The position numbers and the translations under genes are program-made. This document shows positions 12,068-59,915 of a stretch of 64,000 nucleotides of DNA, piece by piece. Position 1 is the stretch's first letter, and each line of letters starts with the position of its first letter. The notes beneath the pieces are model-generated. The model saw nothing but the letters and a program-made list of their open reading frames with translations. It was not told the origin of the DNA and made no database searches. Source of the stretch: Enoplolaimus lenunculus (taxonomy: Eukaryota > Nematoda > Enoplea > Enoplida > Thoracostomopsidae). The stretch lies in NCBI GenBank assembly GCA_030248215.1, contig JASANG010000777.1, positions 239,942-303,941 on the forward strand. Reading direction: 5' to 3'.

Positions 12068-12361
12068 TTACCAAAATTTTATTTCCCAAAATCCCGAGCG
12101 AACAACGCTGCGCCGAAAATCCCAATTTCTCAAAATCCCGACCGAAAAACGCTGCGCCCAAAATCCCAATTTCCCAAAATCTCGACCGAAAAACGCTGCG
12201 CCCAAAATCCCAATTTCCCAAAATCTCGACCGAATAACGCTGCGCCCAAAATCCCGAGCGAAAAACGCTGCGCCCTAAACCCTAATTTCCCAAAATCCCA
12301 ACGAAAAACGCTGCGCCGAAAATCCCGAGCGAAAAACGCTGCGCCAAAAATCCCAATTTCC
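12068..12361. repeat. Minisatellite, ~44-bp unit
   Basis: About seven tandem copies of a unit built from two blocks, AATTTCCCAAAATCCC and GAGCGAAAAACGCTGCGCC. Units are of unequal length because the first block is sometimes missing. All six-frame open reading frames here (for instance 12021-12221, 12060-12278 and 12130-12471) come from the repeat and are not genes. Confidence 0.9.
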
Positions 12362-12501
12362 CGGGTAATATCCGAATTTCCCAAAATAGCAATTTCTCGG
12401 GTAATATCAGCGGATTTTGGGAGGGACCTCTTCTGTACACGGGCCGATATGAGCATAAAAGATATATACAATTCTAAAAGTCAGTATTTATTATTCCAGT
12501 A

Positions 12502-25601: not shown

Positions 25602-28600
25602 TCACTGTCTTAATTTTATCTTTTTGTGCTTCAAATGCGCCGATTCGGACCGTGCACGGCGGCTAACCATCACCCGGCTTTCAACAGTCCTCAACGCCAT
25701 CCGCCGTTTATACTCAACTTTCGATTGTTCTACGGTAACCCAGTGCGGGACGTCTGGAATTGCGAACGCCAAGAAAAACCGCAAAGCAAGCACAACGTGC
25801 TCCAGTGCAACAACGAATAGAATTTGACCACCAACTGATAAATCTGGCCAAAAACGCCGAACCACCCCTGAATAGCCTATTAGAGCGCAGTTCACTATAA
25901 CTCCAACGACTCCAAGGACTTCAAGCGCAGGTTGCCAGTAGCCAATAGAATCCACTCTACGTCCAAACGGCCGTTGAAACGCGTGGGTCAACTTAAACGC
26001 ATCGACATGTATTTCGACCAGATTATTGACTAGAGCACATAGAGCAGCCAATGGGAACGCAGGCGAGAATAGTAGCACTAATCCGAATTGAATATACATT
26101 TCAAGATAGTCTTCCAACGGTGAACTGTACCGAGGCATAATACTTTCGACTTCAGCTTGTGTAAGCTTCGGGCCGTCTTGGGACTGTTGTTGTTTTCCTT
26201 CAGGTGAATTTTCAAAGGTTAAACCGTCGCCGAAAGTATTCGGACTTGTAACCGTACTTGCTTCTGATTGGCTACCTAGTGAACCGGTAGCAGCATTAAA
26301 TGAGCAATCAGTATGTAGTGCCGGTGCGTTCCTTGGACTAAGCGGCAAAGTTAAATGAGATTTATTCTCAGCCAATTTCGACTCGCATTGTTTGGTATGC
26401 CGTCTCCTAAGTACCATTTGAGGATTATCGTCTAGTTCCGGTCTGAGTTCTGCTTCTTGCTCGCAGAGTTCCGCTGAAGTAGTTTCAAATTGACGCAAAG
26501 CGCCGCGAAGTCCCTCGTTCGTTTTTGAGTGATCTACTTCGATCCTTGCCTGGTCGAGTTTTTCAACTCCAGTTAAAATTTTGGATCCATGTTCGCCAAA
26601 GCTTTCCGCTTGTTCTTCGGCCACCCTGGCGCCAGTGAAATTCCCAGGACTCACTAGCAGCTTCCGCCGTTCAGATTTCAATTCGCTCAAATGTTTTTCA
26701 ATCGTATCGCGGTCCATTGATTTAGTCATATTGTACGTTAGGCGGCTCAGTTTAATTTTTTCTACCAGCAACGGCAGGACAGCTTCTTTAAAGTTTCCAA
26801 TCAGTTGCCGAGTAATCAACAGCGCTGCAAGTTGCGCTTTTAGTCGGCCAAAATCACCCAAATAAAACGCAATGTAGAAAAGTGACAAAAAGCTATTAAC
26901 AAACTGAAAACAGACCGTTTTAGTGATTAAATTGTTTTCATACGCGTCTGCAGTTCGATAGTTTTCTTGATCATTTAACCAGACGGCAAGCTTAGAATAA
27001 GCATCGTCTGCTAAAGTGACACAAATGGCAAGTAGAACTTTTGGCACAAACGTAAGCCAGCTAAAATAGCGGCTCCCTGAAAATTCTCGATTAGTCCATT
27101 CTTGTAGTTCGAAGACCGATAACATCAACATAAACATCACCGCGATGCATAATAGGGTCGCAGGGTAAGAAACACCGTAGCGAAACAGCTTTCTCTTCCA
27201 CGGTGCGTGGTATGTTTCCAACCGACCTGTGACAGGACTCCGAACCAGAATCCCTTTGAATTCCGGCCTTGGCTCTTGTAAGAGATCTGTTTCCATCGAT
27301 AAGGTACCCCACTGATATGCAAGTACCGCTTGTCGCCGTTTCCAAGACTCCAAATATAGTGTTGCCCACAGAATATTGACAATAGCGAACGAAACTATCG
27401 CGAAATCATCAGCGACTTGACTTCTACCACTCAATGCAACCCAATGAATCACCCCAAGAATGGCAGGGGCAGTCAGCGCCGTTGTATAGTGTCCAAGCCA
27501 CGCAAAATACATCCCGATCTGTTCTCCAAAATAATCACAGATTGCATCTAAAGGCTGGGATCGAGTGAAATTTCGAACCCAGGACACTTTAAGGTGGCGC
27601 AAATCGCGTTGAGAATGTAACGGAAACATTTGAGTGACTACATTTAGTCGCCGCAGTACCGGAAGTATTAGCTCGCCTTCACGGAACCGGAATAGCTTCC
27701 GTTTCGGTTTGACGTCCGGTTTGTCAAGGCCCGATCCGGAAGTCCCCTTGGCTAGATATAGGCTCTCGTCTGCGCAAGCCCGAATACTGTTCAAAAACGA
27801 ATAAACAATAAGCGCACGCTCTTGACTGCTCAGAAAATGTTTCTCACGGACACCAACAAAACAATCGGCATCTTTATAGACAAAATGTTTCAAACCCCCT
27901 CCATACTGTTCTTTGAGAGGTTTTCGCATTTGAAGTAAGTCAGCGCCTCTTAGCAAGTCTTCATTATGTGCAGTAATATGAATTGCAGTGCTGTTGGTAT
28001 AATTTGAACGTCTTGATTCTAGCTTGATTCGACTGTCCTTGCGTAGTTGACGCATGATCCACGCTAATATTGTTTGATCCTGCCGGTAATTTGACGTTTT
28101 CTCACCAATACATTGATCTTGCAGCTCGGTACTACAAACGCTTTGATGTTGCCGCTCAGCGGTCACATCACCGTCGCTCTCGTGATCACCAGATACAACG
28201 GCGTCATTGGTGACGTCATCAGTGATGTCATTAGTGTTTGATAACTTATCACCGAAATCGGTCCATGTTGCATCCGGTACGACAAGCACAACGTCACATT
28301 TCCGGGTCGGAATTGCATTGAGCCATACTTGTGACGCTAAAATCAATCGAACGCTGGTTGCCAGAAATCGTTCTTTGATGTTACCGCCTGCACCGCCACG
28401 ACAACCACTCGCTCCAGTCCGTTGCAGTTCTTGATCACTACGTTCTAGCAGTAGTTTCATCAGTTCATCCGCCTTTGATTCATTTCCATCTGATTTCAGT
28501 GAGGGTAGCCGAGGTCTAAGCAGGGCTTGAGGAGAATTAGGCTCGTAGATTAGACTCTGATCGCCATCTAGCCCCTCGTTGTCTAAGTAATTCGATTTAG

Positions 28601-28640
28601 GGCTGCCAATAGTTGAGCTGGACGCTTCTGGCGAAGTCAT
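25602..28640 (-). CDS. ANO8: Anoctamin-8-type TMEM16 protein, intronless, 1012 aa
   Basis: One uninterrupted frame from ATG at 28640 to TAA. Residues 1-360 are cytoplasmic and include an acidic low-complexity stretch near 140-165. The TMEM16 membrane domain starts near residue 367 with CDYFGEQIGMYFAWLGHYTT. Later landmarks are AVWLNDQENYRTADAYENNL, FQFVNSFLSLFYIAFYLGDF and, after a long variable loop (about 650-840), TQAEVESIMPRY, EDYLEMYIQFG and ALVNNLVEIHVDAFKL. The last two hold acidic residues equivalent to the TMEM16 calcium site (D/E in EDYLEM, E and D in VEIHVDA). The order and the ITRQ and AFQRPFGRRV motifs point to ANO8, an endoplasmic reticulum-plasma membrane tether, more than ANO10. 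ANO8 genes in animals normally have many introns, and neighbours here have 6-12 exons, so intron loss or retroposition is likely. The frame shows no damage. Confidence 0.95.
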   Translation of the reverse strand: MTSPEASSSTIGSPKSNYLDNEGLDGDQSLIYEPNSPQALLRPRLPSLKSDGNESKADELMKLLLERSDQELQRTGASGCRGGAGGNIKERFLATSVRLILASQVWLNAIPTRKCDVVLVVPDATWTDFGDKLSNTNDITDDVTNDAVVSGDHESDGDVTAERQHQSVCSTELQDQCIGEKTSNYRQDQTILAWIMRQLRKDSRIKLESRRSNYTNSTAIHITAHNEDLLRGADLLQMRKPLKEQYGGGLKHFVYKDADCFVGVREKHFLSSQERALIVYSFLNSIRACADESLYLAKGTSGSGLDKPDVKPKRKLFRFREGELILPVLRRLNVVTQMFPLHSQRDLRHLKVSWVRNFTRSQPLDAICDYFGEQIGMYFAWLGHYTTALTAPAILGVIHWVALSGRSQVADDFAIVSFAIVNILWATLYLESWKRRQAVLAYQWGTLSMETDLLQEPRPEFKGILVRSPVTGRLETYHAPWKRKLFRYGVSYPATLLCIAVMFMLMLSVFELQEWTNREFSGSRYFSWLTFVPKVLLAICVTLADDAYSKLAVWLNDQENYRTADAYENNLITKTVCFQFVNSFLSLFYIAFYLGDFGRLKAQLAALLITRQLIGNFKEAVLPLLVEKIKLSRLTYNMTKSMDRDTIEKHLSELKSERRKLLVSPGNFTGARVAEEQAESFGEHGSKILTGVEKLDQARIEVDHSKTNEGLRGALRQFETTSAELCEQEAELRPELDDNPQMVLRRRHTKQCESKLAENKSHLTLPLSPRNAPALHTDCSFNAATGSLGSQSEASTVTSPNTFGDGLTFENSPEGKQQQSQDGPKLTQAEVESIMPRYSSPLEDYLEMYIQFGLVLLFSPAFPLAALCALVNNLVEIHVDAFKLTHAFQRPFGRRVDSIGYWQPALEVLGVVGVIVNCALIGYSGVVRRFWPDLSVGGQILFVVALEHVVLALRFFLAFAIPDVPHWVTVEQSKVEYKRRMALRTVESRVMVSRRARSESAHLKHKKIKLRQ

Positions 28641-31600
28641 ATTTCTCGGGTAGTTGTGCTGAATAAAGTTTTTCGAAAGTTGGCTTTAGAGGTTATGGTT
28701 TAAATAACGAATAAGTGACGAGTATATTGAGCTAAGCATAGTACGGAAATAAAGCAAATTGGTTTCGTGAATATTTGCTAAAGATGACAGAAAAATACAA
28801 TCGTCCATAGCCACAGTTCTCGAAAATCATAGGAGAGCTAAAGGCTCGCGTATTTAAACCATCTTTAATGAAGTTAGTTTTGGGCCGCTTTACAAAATGG
28901 AACATTTCTCAAAATGAAAACATAATTAGTTTTCTAAGTGGTGAGTAGTGCGCCGGTTTATATCAAAATGCCTCGGGGCCCGGGTCGATTTTTAGCATCA
29001 GTCCAGTCCTGATCCTGCCAACTATTTCCGTGGCCCGTCCAAACGATTGAAAATGACTCTGGGTGTGCACTACACTAAAGTGACCCTAAACTTATAAACG
29101 TTTTGCTTCAAAAACTGTTTCTACCAAATGTGCTGTCAATGACCAAAATTTTCACCGCTGCCTAAAAACCTGAACTGTCCTGACTATGTTTTTTGCTTGA
29201 ATATTGGAAACGGCTACCGTTAAAGGCCACGGCTCGTAAACTTCCGTACAGTATTGTATTTAAAGTGGTCTATAACAGCAGATGCATAGGTAATAAAAAT
29301 TATAATTTCATAGAAAAAAAACATTTTCAAATATTTAAAATTGAATGTATGTAAAACGCCATAACAAATACAGTTTTTAGAGCGCATTGTATTGGGGGAA
29401 ACACTGTAGCGTTGAGAAAAATGTTTCCAAGAAAACATATAAATATATATTTTCCAAAAAAATTGTTGCTTTCTTCGTATACAGGCAGGTAGCTGTAGAT
29501 ACACATTAACAGGGTTTTGGGCCCAAACCCCAAAATATATAGTTGCGGTATTTTTTGAAAACCAGGAAACACATCATATCACTGGCATTTTTTTAAGGGG
29601 CGCAACAATGGATGGGGGTAAGAGAAACACTGATCCACTTCCCCTAAAAGGACAACTCTGCCCGAGGTCGAAAAAAAATATCAACGACAAAAGTTACATG
29701 TTCAGCCAAATTTTTCTCACTTCCCTCACCCACAGTAAATCTTTTTGTTCCTATTACCAGTAACAGCAGCTGTTTGCAAACCTGATTCTTTTTTATGAAC
29801 AGATATCTGTACGATGTAATTTGTTTTAAGCATTTGATAATGGCAAGAAAATAAAAAATTTGTTTTTAAATTTTAAAAATATGTTAAAATTTTCCAAACA
29901 ATCCATCCGACCATGTCTTGAAATCGTTTCTACAGTAACGGTTTTACTTGATACATAACGATATGCTAATATAATGGCAGAAAGCTACAAATTAAATAAT
30001 ATAAATTCTTTTTAACATATAATATCCAGGGTGCGCGACCGGATACCAAAAAATGCCGGAGCCTGATAATATTAGATCCGGCCGGAACCGAGCCAGATAG
30101 TTAATGAAAATCTAACTAGATGGCATTCAAATACCAGAATGGAGCTAATAATTCTTCCCTCCGTGGCTTAAACTATCCAAAGGCTTTACGTAACATAAAC
30201 TTAACAGTTCAAGTGAATTTTCATTGTCACGCAATAATTATGGGCAGATATTCTGGAGAAACACAAAAACTATGGAAAACATACTGTGTTAGAAATAGTT
30301 GTTTTGAAAATTTTAACTTTGTCGGTGATGGCAAAAACTTGACCTGGACCGAGACTTTTCATGACCGGTCTCGGTAGTCAGGTCTCGGCCTCGGGTCTCG
30401 GGTTTTATCTAGACTGCCCATTCCTGTTTAAAATCGAGGCAATTACTTTTGCTTAGGCTTGGGTCTGGTTTAGATTTATTTTTACGCAGAAGGTTAACCT
30501 TAGATTACAAATTGGAATTTCCTGAAATTCTGTTACGCCCTTAAAATATCACTGGTCAGCTATCAGGTTTTCCAGCGTTATTAAAACCCAATAAAAATTG
30601 TGATCGAACATGGGCGCATGTAAACATTTACATTACCTGTACGACAGAAAATACATGTCAAAGTAAGGCAATCAATTTCCACGGTAGTTGGCATAAGTAA
30701 CTTCAAATTTTTGAAATTTTAAAAAAATATCCAGCAAGTTAAAATACCGGAGCCGGAGCCGAGGCAATCTGTAAAATCACCTTTGAATTTCCCTTGACAC
30801 AAAACCCATGAGCTCATAACATTTGAATTCAAACCCCCAACGAAAGCAACTTTTTCTCATACACCAAAACAGTCCACAAGTACTTTATCAACGATTCTAG
30901 CTGGCTGAATAATGAACAGCTTAGTGTGGCGTATGTTGGGCGACAATCCCATCCAGCTTAGCGTCCTTTCAAAATGCAGAAGGTTCAAGGAAGCCGCAGC
31001 CCTACCTCTTGAGAAAAAAAGCACAAATTGATTAAAAAGTTTGGTTGTTTCGTTACTGAAAAAGTTTCTTTCTACATTTGTGTCGTGAAATTAATAGCAA
31101 ATCAGGTGCGCTAAACCAGTCATCAAACGCTAAAAATGACGCGATTCAAATCAACGCGTCGCTTTTAGACAGTAATATACATGTGAAAAATATAGATTAA
31201 TAAACTATTGAAAATACATTTTTAGTTCCGCTCCGCTGCATTGCACAGGATCATAAAAAGTGAAAGTATACATTCAAGTCTTAAAAAATTTAAATTTAAT
31301 TGAAATTATCAGGAAAGGTATGAGGAGTCAAATCGGCATTTAATGTTCCAATATATTAAGACTAGAGCGGGTCCTGCAGATTTGGACCAATCCTACTTGA
31401 ACAATGTAGCAACCAAAATATATTCCTAAGTTTGAGCATCCTCAGCATATTGTACACAACTCTAAAACAAAGCGTAGCCTAAGCCCAAGCAAAAAACTTA
31501 GTTTAAAATTTAATCGAGAAGGCGGGCAAAAGCGGATCCAAAGGTTGCTCAGAACTTTTTGTGATAAAATGACATGGTCTTTACTATGCAATTTATTGTC

Positions 31601-53920: not shown

Positions 53921-54304
53921 TCATCCGAATCTCGCAGGCGAACGATACCGTTTACCGAACCGTGCCGGTGAGCGATACCGTTTGCCAAACCGAGCCGGTG
54001 ACCGGTAGCGTTTGCCGAATCGCGCAGGCGACCGGTAACGTTTACCAGTCGCCGGCCATAAACTGTCATCGACGAGAGATGCGCCTTCCATGGAGACACT
54101 TCTTGCTTTGATGACATGGCTCGCGATTTCAAGATTTCCAGAGTGGGGATCAATTCGGTGGGGGGTCTCGTGAAGCTGGGACGATTTTAACGCGGATGGC
54201 TTCAACATGAATGCGACAGATGCAGTTGGGAACGTCGCGAGATGGAACGTAACAATTAGAACAACTAAAGGTGATAGTAGGCGTAGCATGTGTCGCGCTA
54301 TCAT
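53921..54304 (-). CDS. RFamide neuropeptide precursor, four YRSPARFamide copies
   Basis: A single-exon frame of 127 codons, ATG at 54304. Residues 7-30 (LRLLSPLVVLIVTFHLATF and following) form a signal peptide with a likely cut near ASVA. About 60 residues of spacer follow. The C-terminal third is GKR followed by four copies of YRSPARFG, separated by KR, and the last copy ends in Gly just before the stop. Prohormone convertase cutting at KR and Gly-directed amidation would release four identical YRSPARF-amide octapeptides; RYR- or longer forms are not expected. The four copies use different synonymous codons in most positions (for example Arg as CGG, CGC, CGT; Ser-Pro as TCGCCT, TCACCG), so the peptide, not the DNA, is what is conserved. 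The family resembles FMRFamide-like/RFamide peptides; I do not know a named orthologue. No other KR or RR peptide lies in the spacer. Confidence 0.85.
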   Translation of the reverse strand: MIARHMLRLLSPLVVLIVTFHLATFPTASVAFMLKPSALKSSQLHETPHRIDPHSGNLEIASHVIKARSVSMEGASLVDDSLWPATGKRYRSPARFGKRYRSPARFGKRYRSPARFGKRYRSPARFG

Positions 54305-55119
54305 TGCGAATGGTTGTTGATTAAAATATAGGTCGACGACAGATTCAGATTGCTATTAGTCTACTTTTATTTTAAATAACTCTAAAATTTAAGTTGTATT
54401 AAACCACAAGAAAGACACGAATTAAAAACAGCTGGATTTCAGCCAACAGAAATACGGCCACGGTATAAATGACATAGCCAATGACATGGCCAACGTTACT
54501 TTTAGGGGCGTACAGTAGATTAATCGTATTCCTAAGCCTAAGCCTAAAGCAAAAAAATGTAAACTAGAATCTAAAACCTACTGTTTTATAGACCCACAAG
54601 AAACCTGGACATTCAATCCACTCTCTATAGATATACTAAAGTATAACTATCGTGCAAACTATATACGCGTAGATATACAATACACAATGCGCAGTGTTTA
54701 TCAATTCATTCACGTATATGAGCAGCAGCAGAAGATCTCAACTGAACTCTTACTCGAGCGTCAAGCTTTTATATTTGAGTTGAGACCTGGTTTCGAACCT
54801 TAGCTTGAAATTCGTTCTGTGATGTAATAGAAATATTATTCAAGTAAGAATTGGACGCCTCAGGCTTGGCTTAAAGACAACCGTTTTAGTCTAAACTTAA
54901 GTGATCGCGTAAACTAGTCCGTGGTCATTCCTTTTCGGTGACCTGCAAATTACTCGGCTAAACATTTTTATCTGCTACGTTTGATTAGAATCAAAACCAT
55001 GGTTTTGTTGCATAACATTCCTAAATGTGAGCACTTATCACTAGTAAGTACATAAACTTTACGCCATTAGTCTGTAGCCAACTAAGGCTTGCCAACTCAG
55101 AAAAAAAACCAGGTTTTAA
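54305..55119. other. Intergenic between neuropeptide gene and ShKT gene
   Basis: The two genes are divergently transcribed. A MITE fragment with GGCCAACGTTACTTTTAGGG and CCTAAGCCTAAGCC is at about 54490-54620. No other feature recognised. Confidence 0.5.
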
Positions 55120-56395
55120 ATGAAGTATATACAAGGAATTACTCTAACTCTGTTATACGGATTTGCAAGCTACAAGTCGTGTTACGAATGGTTTTGCAAA
55201 AATTACGTTAAATATACCGTAGACACCGCAAGATTTAAAGGTAATAAAATGATGTAATTTAATTACACAGTGAACCCTGTATGAAACAAATATACCCCAG
55301 GATACTCGATCATACCCGTCATAGGGACTTTAGCTCAGAACAAAAACGCCGAATTTGTTTGCGTTTTCTCGTGGGTGGGAAACGAAAAAAAGTCATTTTT
55401 TTCAAAATGTCAAATTTCGATGTGAAATGATTACCAGGGGTCATGCGAACCTTGAATATGCAAAATTAGCAAAATCTTGCCATATTTGGACAAAGCTGAT
55501 TACGCTATTTATTTGTCAGGAGTTTCATCAATTGTTAACTGTTTAGGTTGTGAAAATCAAATGAATGATTCAATATGCGAAGCGTTGTTAACTTCAGATC
55601 CAGATTGCAATGGAGAGTTTGTTAAGTCAAATTGTCCAAAAAGCTGTCGAAACTGCCCGAAAGGTATGTTAAAAAGCACTATTCACAAGTGCAAGTTTTT
55701 GCCGCGATAACTATCCGTTTTAACCTGACTCTGTTAATGCCCCAAATTTTTTCGTTACTGACTATAAACGACAATAATGATTTGCCAAAACGAGTATTTA
55801 AGGGCAGGCCGTGTCACACTGGCCTGTTCAGAAAACATATGGCTATTTGAACGCGGCTTGGTCTTGCTTGTTATATATCGCAAATTTCCTGCATGCCAAT
55901 GTCGAACCAGATCATTTTTTGCCCTACCTATCACATTGCGATCCCTGCAGACTTGTGTACAATAAAGCCAAACTTTCTGGTGACTGATATATTAAACACT
56001 CAGCCGCGTCTATAATGCTGGCACATTTGTCCCCAATAAAACCACGAACCAGAAACTTCACACAAAGTCTCACCTCGATTCTTAAGTTATAAATCAAAAT
56101 AAGCCTAGAAATATAAAAACGGACGCGTTTATATGCAGTAAAAGGTGCAGTATATTAATGAAAGCATTTATACGCAACACATCTGGGTCGGCAAATCAAA
56201 AAGACGCTTGTCATCTGCTGCGGAAATAGATTAATTCACTGATTTAAATTTTAACTTTACGGCCGTGCGAGAGAAGATTTTAAGGCTGACCGGAGCTCTG
56301 CAGATCTCAGGACTGCAACAGCAGATTTGGATGTATTACGGAAGGATAGAACTTCATTTAAAAGTTTGTGGCGAGCTGAAAATTCTGAAATATAG
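55120..56395 (+). CDS. ShKT-domain protein with sulfotransferase-like C-terminal segment (model)
   Basis: Four exons, 55120-55240, 55547-55663, 55803-55979 and 56274-56395, each joined at phase 1, give 178 codons plus stop. Exon 1 starts MKYIQGITLTLLYGFASYKS, a possible signal peptide or short anchor. Exon 2 is a ShKT domain: six Cys in the pattern C-x8-C-x8-C-x8-C-x3-C-x2-C, with the typical SNCPKSCRNC end. Exon 3 carries DHFLPYLSHCDPCRLVYNKA, which resembles the D-HW-P-x-C-x-PC-x3-Y signature near the C terminus of carbohydrate sulfotransferases (CHST8-14 type). Exon 4 is charged and helical, as is the tail of that family. The PAPS-binding half of a sulfotransferase is absent. ShKT modules occur in many secreted animal enzymes and are not in themselves toxins. 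Exons 1-2 are well supported. Exons 3-4 rest on phase and weak similarity, and the exon 4 acceptor has a poor pyrimidine tract. Confidence 0.45.
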
Positions 56396-56888: not shown

Positions 56889-57843
56889 AGGGTTTCAACA
56901 AAATTCCGATTGTGACTATATTTCTGATAAAATTTGAGGTCCGATTCCCACTGGATTCAATTCTGATTTCCCCGTTATGAGTTTTTAAAGTGATTGAACT
57001 TTGATTTTGCCTGTTGTTTCGTTCGTTTGCACTTTTATTCTGTTTTTTCTTAGTAAGTATTTTCACTTGTTAACACTTGAAGACCATCTAGCAGAGCAAA
57101 TGATTCCGTAAACGAATAACAAAATCTAAACTTTTTTATAGCTGCAAACAGTTATGTTAGAACCACAAATTTTCAATTATAGCTCGATATTTGGTTCAAC
57201 AGCATTCATACTTCATTGAAAAATATTCAATTTAGAGTCCTGTACAGAATTGTAGTGGAGCGGTGCGCGGCACGATAAAATGTATTCAACATTGTCGCAC
57301 GCCATGAAATAGATATTGCGTATGCTTTGTTAGCATCGTATACCGTCGCGCGGCGGTGTTCAGCGGCACGCAGTGACGTACAACGGCGTCCGCCGACGCA
57401 CTGCACAGTAACATATAGCGCATCGCTAACACAGTCAGCTATACAAGCAATTTGTACTGAAAGTGTGAACAACGCAAACAATCATACCTTACGGCAACAA
57501 AAGTCATACACTTTACTTTGTAACAGAATTACTAAAATTTAATCAGATTCCGGTTCCGACAAAAAAAAAATTGAATTCCGATTTCGGTTCTACTTTCGAC
57601 AAAACGTATATATACTTCTGATTGGAACCCTGGCCCATGTATAGAACAGGGCCGAAACAGTAGTATAAGTATATTCCTACGCCTAAGCCTAAGCCTAAGT
57701 GTAAGGATAAGCCTATTCTTAAGCCTATGTCTAAGCCTAAGCCTAATCATACGCAAAAAAAGTTAGTCTAAAGCTTAAACTGACTCAATTACAGCCCCGC
57801 AGGAACACGATCCGGTCCTGTTCTATACGTGGGCCGGAACCCT
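56889..57843. mobile_element. hAT-like element, interrupted by a second MITE
   Basis: Ends AGGGTTTCAACAAAATTCCG and GGAACCCT, with flanks CATATATC (56881-56888) and AATATATC (57844-57851), seven of eight equal. GATTCCGGTTCCGAC words are near both ends. The middle (57227-57540) contains a GC-richer block with short open frames on both strands, none recognisable as a transposase. The right end is split by the 204-bp MITE at 57632-57835. Confidence 0.75.
57632..57835. mobile_element. CCTAAG-core hAT-like MITE, copy 1
   Basis: A 204-bp element with inverted ends GGCCCATGTATAGAACAGGG and CCTGTTCTATACGTGGGCC and a perfect 8-bp duplication GGAACCCT (57624-57631, 57836-57843). The core is a run of CCTAAG hexamers. 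It has inserted within the last bases of the element at 56889. Confidence 0.92.
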
Positions 57844-59727: not shown

Positions 59728-59915
59728 GGTCCATGTATAGAACAGGGCCGAAACAGTAATATAAGCATATTCCTAAGCCTAAGCCTAAGCGTATGGACGA
59801 ACCTATTCCTAACCTAAGCCTAAGCCTCAGCCTAAGCAAAAAATAGTCTAAAGCTTAAACTGACTCTATTATAGCCCCTCCGGAAAACGATCCGGTCCTG
59901 TTCTATACATGGGTC
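59728..59915. mobile_element. CCTAAG-core hAT-like MITE, copy 2
   Basis: A 188-bp copy with ends GGTCCATGTATAGAACAGGG and CCTGTTCTATACATGGGTC, flanked by ACAATTAT on both sides (59720-59727, 59916-59923). Confidence 0.92.

What the first reader, a model, noticed from the sequence alone, without database searches (positions are those of the whole stretch)
53921..54304. Neuropeptide precursor with four identical YRSPARF-amide peptides
The frame ends in four YRSPARFG units spaced by KR, after a signal peptide and a spacer. Most synonymous positions differ between copies while all four peptides are identical, which indicates selection on the peptide and argues against a recent DNA duplication. 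The SPARF-amide ending is not one I can match to a named family, so it may be a lineage-specific RFamide.
Basis: partly seen in the sequence, partly recalled or inferred. Interest (0 to 1): 0.85.

Follow-up and report, generated by a model that had tools for sequence, protein, structure and literature searches.

The report
New RFamide neuropeptide precursor in worm
An unnamed animal genome, likely of an early-branching roundworm or a close relative, carries one gene-like frame that spells the peptide YRSPARF four times with only silent DNA differences between the copies; it is predicted to be cut and amidated into a nerve-signalling peptide, and the protein and literature searches made here found no match for it.

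Summary
Minus strand 54304-53921 is a 127-codon frame: hydrophobic signal-like start, spacer, four tandem KRYRSPARFG units, stop. Nine of ten codon columns vary between copies, yet all 14 minimum substitutions are silent, in this frame only. Among 26 other tandem-repeat arrays of this genome, runs of four identical units reach at most 0.2 silent changes per codon, against 1.40 here and 0.6-1.3 in five RFamide arrays, so a neutral minisatellite is very unlikely. The locus is single-copy in a 296 Mb assembly. An anoctamin exon in the window groups with nematodes (100/100). The genome holds at least nine other RFamide/RYamide array loci, including the known nematode FLP peptides KNEFIRF and KPNFIRF. 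YRSPARF fits none of 32 tabulated nematode flp genes, no protein among 5.8 billion at the search's sensitivity, and no paper found. Best reading: a new, divergent FMRFamide-like (FLP) precursor gene, lineage-restricted as far as can be seen. Secretion, processing, expression, receptor and function are inferred. New member of a known kind.

The parts
53921..54304 (-). Uninterrupted frame of the predicted neuropeptide precursor (127 aa plus stop); further 5' exons cannot be excluded
   Evidence: in-frame stop upstream of the ATG (stop-to-stop frame ends at 54352); GC 0.531 against 0.37 and 0.358 in the 500-bp flanks; only copy in the 296 Mb assembly
54212..54304 (-). Predicted signal peptide, residues 1-31 (MIARHMLRLLSPLVVLIVTFHLATFPTASVA), small residues at -3 and -1
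   Evidence: hydropathy maximum 2.65 over 11 residues; crude rule passed, but 12 of 65 window frames also pass
54044..54211 (-). Spacer, residues 32-87, ending in G before the first KR
   Evidence: translation; no Pfam match for the whole protein
54014..54043 (-). Unit 1, KRYRSPARFG
53984..54013 (-). Unit 2, KRYRSPARFG
53954..53983 (-). Unit 3, KRYRSPARFG
53924..53953 (-). Unit 4, KRYRSPARFG, directly before the stop
   Evidence: three other RFamide arrays of this genome also end RFG-stop (L023, L030, L034)

Best explanation
This 127-codon frame encodes four identical KR-bounded YRSPARFG units and is likely the precursor of a secreted, amidated neuropeptide, predicted YRSPARF-NH2, of the nematode FMRFamide-like (FLP) type. 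Inferred mechanism: the signal-peptide-like start would send the protein into the secretory pathway; a proprotein convertase would cut at each KR; a carboxypeptidase would trim the basic residues; peptidylglycine amidating monooxygenase would turn each C-terminal Gly into an amide. One transcript would then give four copies of the same heptapeptide, released from dense-core vesicles to act on a G-protein-coupled receptor. Four identical units would be a dose device: the peptide is held constant while the DNA drifts. Shown: the frame, the repeat, the silent-only divergence, single copy in the assembly, no database match at the sensitivity used, similar RFamide arrays in the same genome. Inferred: secretion, processing, amidation, neuronal expression, receptor.
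For: Four tandem units with all 14 minimum substitutions silent, in this frame only. Control: of 26 tandem-repeat arrays from the same genome, labelled as decoys by eye, 12 have no four identical consecutive units and the other 14 reach at most 0.20 silent changes per codon; five RFamide arrays reach 0.6-1.3, the candidate 1.40. Same layout as RFamide arrays of this genome: KNEFIRFG x7, KNEFMRFG x7, KNEFMRYG x9, KNE[IL]VRFG x9, KPNFIRFG x7, each KR-bounded. Three of the nine further loci also end RFG-stop. Raised GC over the frame. Not an interspersed repeat: one DNA match genome-wide.
Against: No transcript, peptide or ortholog evidence. No homolog in 5.8 billion proteins for the full precursor (6 candidates) or its repeat region (6664 candidates), none at E<=10. 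The motif fits none of the 32 flp rows tabulated in PMC4058706. The signal peptide rests on a crude rule that 12 of 65 window frames also pass. A PAM family search and a convertase family search did not complete, so the processing enzymes were not checked in this genome. Signal peptides of the sister loci were not looked for.
Confidence: 0.87

Rival explanations
1. A 30-bp minisatellite that happens to be open in one frame and to spell RFGKR; no peptide is made.
For: This genome has many open tandem arrays; repeats rich in TTAGGC hexamers even spell KRKNEFIPKPK-like units. Tandem Repeats Finder lists the array at 53925-54046.
Against: Silent-only divergence, in one frame of six; none of 26 decoy arrays comes near it; a signal-like start and a stop frame it; one DNA match genome-wide.
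Confidence: 0.04
2. A divergent sequelogue of a known flp gene with Pro four from the end (flp-2 EPIRF, flp-15 GPLRF, flp-21 RPLRF, one flp-13 peptide VPIRF) or of flp-31 (LYRPRGPPRF), rather than a separate gene. This is nested in the best explanation, not exclusive of it.
For: Shared P-x-R-F ending or YR start in the review table. McCoy et al. 2024 say flp paralogues can lose motif likeness beyond the RFamide (PMC11658156).
Against: The Leu/Ile before RF in flp-2, -15 and -21 is Ala here. flp-15 and flp-21 peptides are 9 residues, flp-2 peptides 8, flp-31 10. The 2024 survey calls flp-31 Meloidogyne-specific, with one peptide, though the 2014 table lists other plant parasites too. No precursor similarity was found.
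Confidence: 0.2
3. A secreted repeat peptide that is not a neuropeptide (for example an epidermal or gut peptide) but uses the same processing signals.
For: Sequence alone cannot show the tissue; no expression data are at hand.
Against: Repeated C-terminal RFG plus KR is the FLP layout, and nine other RFamide/RYamide loci of this genome have such arrays.
Confidence: 0.07

Closest known systems
Nematode FLP-8 (KNEFIRFamide, AF1) and similar arrays in the same genome (C742, C770, C911, C1113)
   Same: Tandem KR-bounded RFamide/RYamide units, 7-9 copies, silent drift between copies, two of the four frames ending RFG-stop
   Different: Peptide motif KNEF[I/M]R[F/Y] or KNE[I/L]VRF against YRSPARF; spacers were not compared
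flp-2 / flp-15 / flp-21 (EPIRF, GPLRF, RPLRF endings; PMC4058706 Table 1)
   Same: P-x-R-F-amide C-terminus
   Different: x is Ala here, not Ile/Leu; flp-21 encodes one peptide; N-terminal parts unlike
flp-31 (LYRPRGPPRFamide, plant-parasitic nematodes)
   Same: YR near the N-terminus, Pro, RFamide
   Different: Ten residues, PPRF ending, single peptide; four heptapeptides here
FDLPRFG array at C1113:26062 of the same genome (L034)
   Same: Multi-copy (9) peptides with Pro close to the RF, ending RFG-stop
   Different: Pro directly before RF; acidic FD core; copies vary

Membership tests
Nematode FLP (RFamide) precursor class | C-terminal RF followed by Gly (amide donor) in each unit | tested here: met
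   4 of 4 units; amidation itself not testable
Nematode FLP (RFamide) precursor class | Units flanked by dibasic cleavage sites | tested here: met
   KR before all 4 units, stop after the last
Nematode FLP (RFamide) precursor class | N-terminal signal peptide | tested here: inconclusive
   Hydrophobic start with a -3/-1 site, but the crude rule passes 12 of 65 window frames; no trained predictor available
Nematode FLP (RFamide) precursor class | Constraint on the peptide, not the DNA | tested here: met
   14 of 14 silent; six-frame and decoy controls
Nematode FLP (RFamide) precursor class | The animal is a nematode | tested here: inconclusive
   Anoctamin tree groups it with six nematode rows at 100/100, outside the other six (81/65, weak), no nematomorph in the tree; KNEFIRF and KPNFIRF arrays present; TTAGGC repeats; SL1 22-mer absent at up to 1 mismatch
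Any one named flp gene (flp-1 to flp-28, -31 to -34) | Peptide fits the gene's consensus motif or listed peptides | tested here: not met
   Compared by eye with all 32 rows of Table 1 of PMC4058706; no row ends PARF
Any one named flp gene | Detectable precursor homology | tested here: not met
   No match at E<=10; the search needs shared 5-residue words and similar length
Nematode FLP (RFamide) precursor class | Expression in neurons and activity on a receptor | not testable with these tools
   No expression or peptide data

The most novel reading that the evidence does not exclude
YRSPARF-amide is an RFamide system not descended from any described flp gene, either born in this lineage or an ancient nematoid RFamide lost from the crown clades, with its own receptor; with nine or more other RFamide loci it shows that some early-branching nematodes (or nematomorphs) are not poor in FLPs, in contrast with the average of 3.9 flp genes reported for clade 2.
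Probability: 0.35. Interest if true: 0.6.

Novelty: new member of a known kind. Interest (0 to 1): 0.42.

Why it matters
McCoy et al. 2024 (PMC11658156; abstract and whole Results and discussion read) propose flp-1, -8, -14 and -18 as a possible ancestral nematode set and report an average of 3.9 flp genes in clade 2. They say genomes from clades 1-5 and Nematomorpha may help to tell loss from later expansion. This genome may be such a one: in the anoctamin tree it groups with nematodes but outside the crown rows, whose own branch has 100/100. It has at least ten RFamide/RYamide array loci, one of them with a motif outside the tabulated set. The gene also gives an exact mass and a clean peptide for testing.

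Tried and rejected
Rejected: a chance or minisatellite frame; a transposon or interspersed repeat (one match genome-wide); a gene on the opposite strand (two of its three frames hold stops within the array, and 3, 8 and 9 of 10 residues vary); a non-metazoan source (anoctamin, MFS and proteasome-subunit matches in the window; animal hits). Romanomermis culicivorax as the source was considered and set aside: its anoctamin is 46% identical, and its assemblies are 322.8 Mb in 62,537 and 359.1 Mb in 595 scaffolds (PMC10879605, passages only), against 296 Mb in 3185 contigs here.

Led nowhere: full-precursor and repeat-region protein searches; Pfam on the precursor; COX1 in the assembly (none found); paper searches for SPARFamide-like strings (the seven papers listed look unrelated from the listing); passages of the NLP survey PMC8764417 for the MAFG/SAFG arrays (no occurrence). 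No structure was predicted: a short repeat precursor of this kind is expected to be disordered (my judgement).

Rows left out: the first anoctamin tree used 34 of 120 listed hits of 712, the careful tree 20 of 120. All 17 distinct places other than the gene itself were opened: 5 of 17 are RFamide arrays. Of the 143 matches only 20 regions were opened, so nine further loci is a lower bound. Of the seven contigs, two were known already, four more were opened and one (C1823, with a stop) was not. The decoy control used 26 arrays, one of which (L024) holds an internal stop, and units of 5-20 residues; L034, L038, L052, L054, L056, L058, L074-L080 and repeat fetches of the same places were not in it, as other precursors, non-tandem, too short, fetched for other ends, or duplicates.

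Full report
What is there. The minus strand from 54304 to 53921 holds an open frame of 127 codons, ATG to TGA. It begins with a hydrophobic stretch (top 11-residue hydropathy 2.65) followed by a plausible TASVA/F cleavage site. A 56-residue spacer follows, then four KRYRSPARFG units and the stop. The frame's GC is 0.531 against 0.37 and 0.358 in the 500-bp flanks. There is no Pfam match at E<=0.01.

Is it more than chance. Among the four units 10 of 30 nucleotide columns and 9 of 10 codon columns vary, with 14 substitutions at the least. All 14 are silent, one of them a first-position Arg change. With 27-31% of single changes silent, 14 of 14 has a probability of 3e-8 to 8e-8 under a simple independent model. 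The same DNA read in the other five frames shows 3, 8, 9, 9 and 9 variable residues of 10, and three of those five frames contain stops. Four of the five fit only three whole units, but three units in the real frame still give 9 variable codons and no variable residue. As an empirical control I took 26 tandem arrays of the same genome that similarity searches had brought in and that I judged by eye not to be precursors. Twelve have no four identical consecutive units; in the other 14 the most silent-diverged run of four reaches 0.20 changes per codon. Five RFamide arrays reach 0.6 to 1.3, and the candidate 1.40. The array is therefore very likely under selection for the peptide. The signal peptide is weaker evidence: 12 of 65 ATG frames of the window pass the same crude rule.

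Whose genome. The assembly is 296 Mb in 3185 contigs, unnamed. A 1027-codon anoctamin frame at 25602-28685 has mostly animal proteins named anoctamin-8 among its 120 listed hits, some named anoctamin-10 or unnamed. In a careful maximum-likelihood tree of 21 rows it groups with all six nematode rows at 100/100, outside Romanomermis plus the crown rows, though that last step is weak (81/65). Joining it to the crown rows without Romanomermis, or to Romanomermis alone, is not rejected (AU p 0.175 and 0.282). Five TTAGGC repeats in a row give 7438 matches, overlapping ones counted, with 0 for the reversed control. TTAGGC is the nematode telomere unit (recalled). The SL1 leader (typed from recall) is absent at up to one mismatch, which fits a non-chromadorean (recalled reasoning). 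No nematomorph row was in the tree, so Nematomorpha is not excluded.

The peptide system around it. Searching the genome with the repeat, then with a KNEFIRF array found that way, then with an FLP-18-like query, showed at least nine other RFamide/RYamide array loci. They are KNE[IL]VRFG x9 (C1113), KNEFIRFG x7 (C742), KNEFMRFG x7 (C770), KNEFMRYG x9 (C911), KPNFIRFG x7 (C346), PN[FL][IL]RFG x19 (C464), PGLMRFG x11 (C633), GM[LM]RYG x5 (C2537) and D[LMI]PRFG x9 (C1113). KNEFIRFamide is AF1, encoded by flp-8, and KPNFIRFamide is PF4 (PMC4058706; the PF4 name from a reference title there). PNFLRF is the FLP-1 motif (PMC11658156), so the C464 array is flp-1-like; PGLMRF is flp-18-like by its PG..RF form. 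An FLP-14-like query, at E<=0.01, met the KNEF-type, KPNFIRF and FDLPRF arrays and a few non-precursor repeats, no KHEYLRF array. I did not look for signal peptides or full gene models of these loci.

Comparison. I compared YRSPARF by eye with all 32 flp rows of Table 1 in PMC4058706 (section 4 read in full). None ends PARF. The nearest are flp-2, -15 and -21 (EPIRF, GPLRF, RPLRF), one flp-13 peptide (VPIRF) and flp-31 (LYRPRGPPRF). The residue before RF is Ile, Leu, Val or Met in nearly all rows; Pro occurs in flp-31 and -33, and Ala is allowed only in the flp-7 consensus. Protein searches over 5.8 billion sequences gave nothing for the full precursor (6 candidates) or its repeat region (6664 candidates), none at E<=10. 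They require shared five-residue words and similar length, so unannotated orthologs in other worms could be missed. Paper searches for the strings found nothing relevant; only open-licence PMC papers are held there.

How it most likely works. Inferred: secretion, convertase cutting at KR, basic-residue trimming, Gly-to-amide conversion, release of four copies of YRSPARF-NH2, action on a G-protein-coupled receptor. An alternative product, SPARF-NH2, would follow from a cut after the internal Arg. The spacer also ends in Gly before KR, so a second amidated peptide ending ...LWPAT-NH2 is possible. The enzymes could not be checked, as those searches did not complete.

Verdict. It is a new member of a known kind. 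Its interest lies less in the single peptide than in the at least ten RFamide/RYamide array loci of a lineage near the base of the nematodes, where the 2024 survey (PMC11658156) says more genomes may settle how the FLP set evolved.

Noticed in passing
own genome C1113:45790-46026, C742:54021-54173, C770:86032-86217, C911:57860-58129, C346:105017-105274, C464 (L078), C633 (L074), C2537 (L075), C1113:26044-26178: Nine further RFamide/RYamide array loci, including flp-8-type KNEFIRF x7, a KNEFMRY variant x9, a flp-1-like PNFIRF array x19, PGLMRF x11 (flp-18-like) and a FDLPRF array x9. The number of loci exceeds the clade 2 average of 3.9 given in PMC11658156.
   Followed up: partly
L054 (C427:121442-121630) and L056 (C835:57443-57571): Two more KR-bounded arrays ending FG without RF: WNSAFGKR-type and YGMAFGKR-type repeats, possibly NLP-like precursors.
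   Followed up: no
L041-L051, L055, L058, L059: Interspersed repeats whose translation reads KRKNEFIPKPK-like units; 12 of these 14 loci hold 5.0-24.5 TTAGGC/GCCTAA hexamers per kb against 0.8 in the window, L044 (0) and L046 (1.2) do not. They mimic neuropeptide arrays and would mislead a motif scan.
   Followed up: partly
window 57676-57746, 59772-59837: Degenerate CCTAAG (TTAGGC-type) interstitial arrays 3-6 kb from the gene; genome-wide 7438 overlapping matches to five units in a row.
   Followed up: partly
window 55456-55710 +: Frame with a weak ShK-like match (18.5 bits, below the Pfam cut-off of 20.9).
   Followed up: no
window 25602-28685 -: A 1027-codon uninterrupted anoctamin frame, which seems long for one exon of a nematode gene (my impression).
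   Followed up: partly
window 12081-12362: Overlapping tandem arrays of 44-bp (4.0 copies, 94% matches) and 71-bp (2.7 copies, 88%) units.
   Followed up: no
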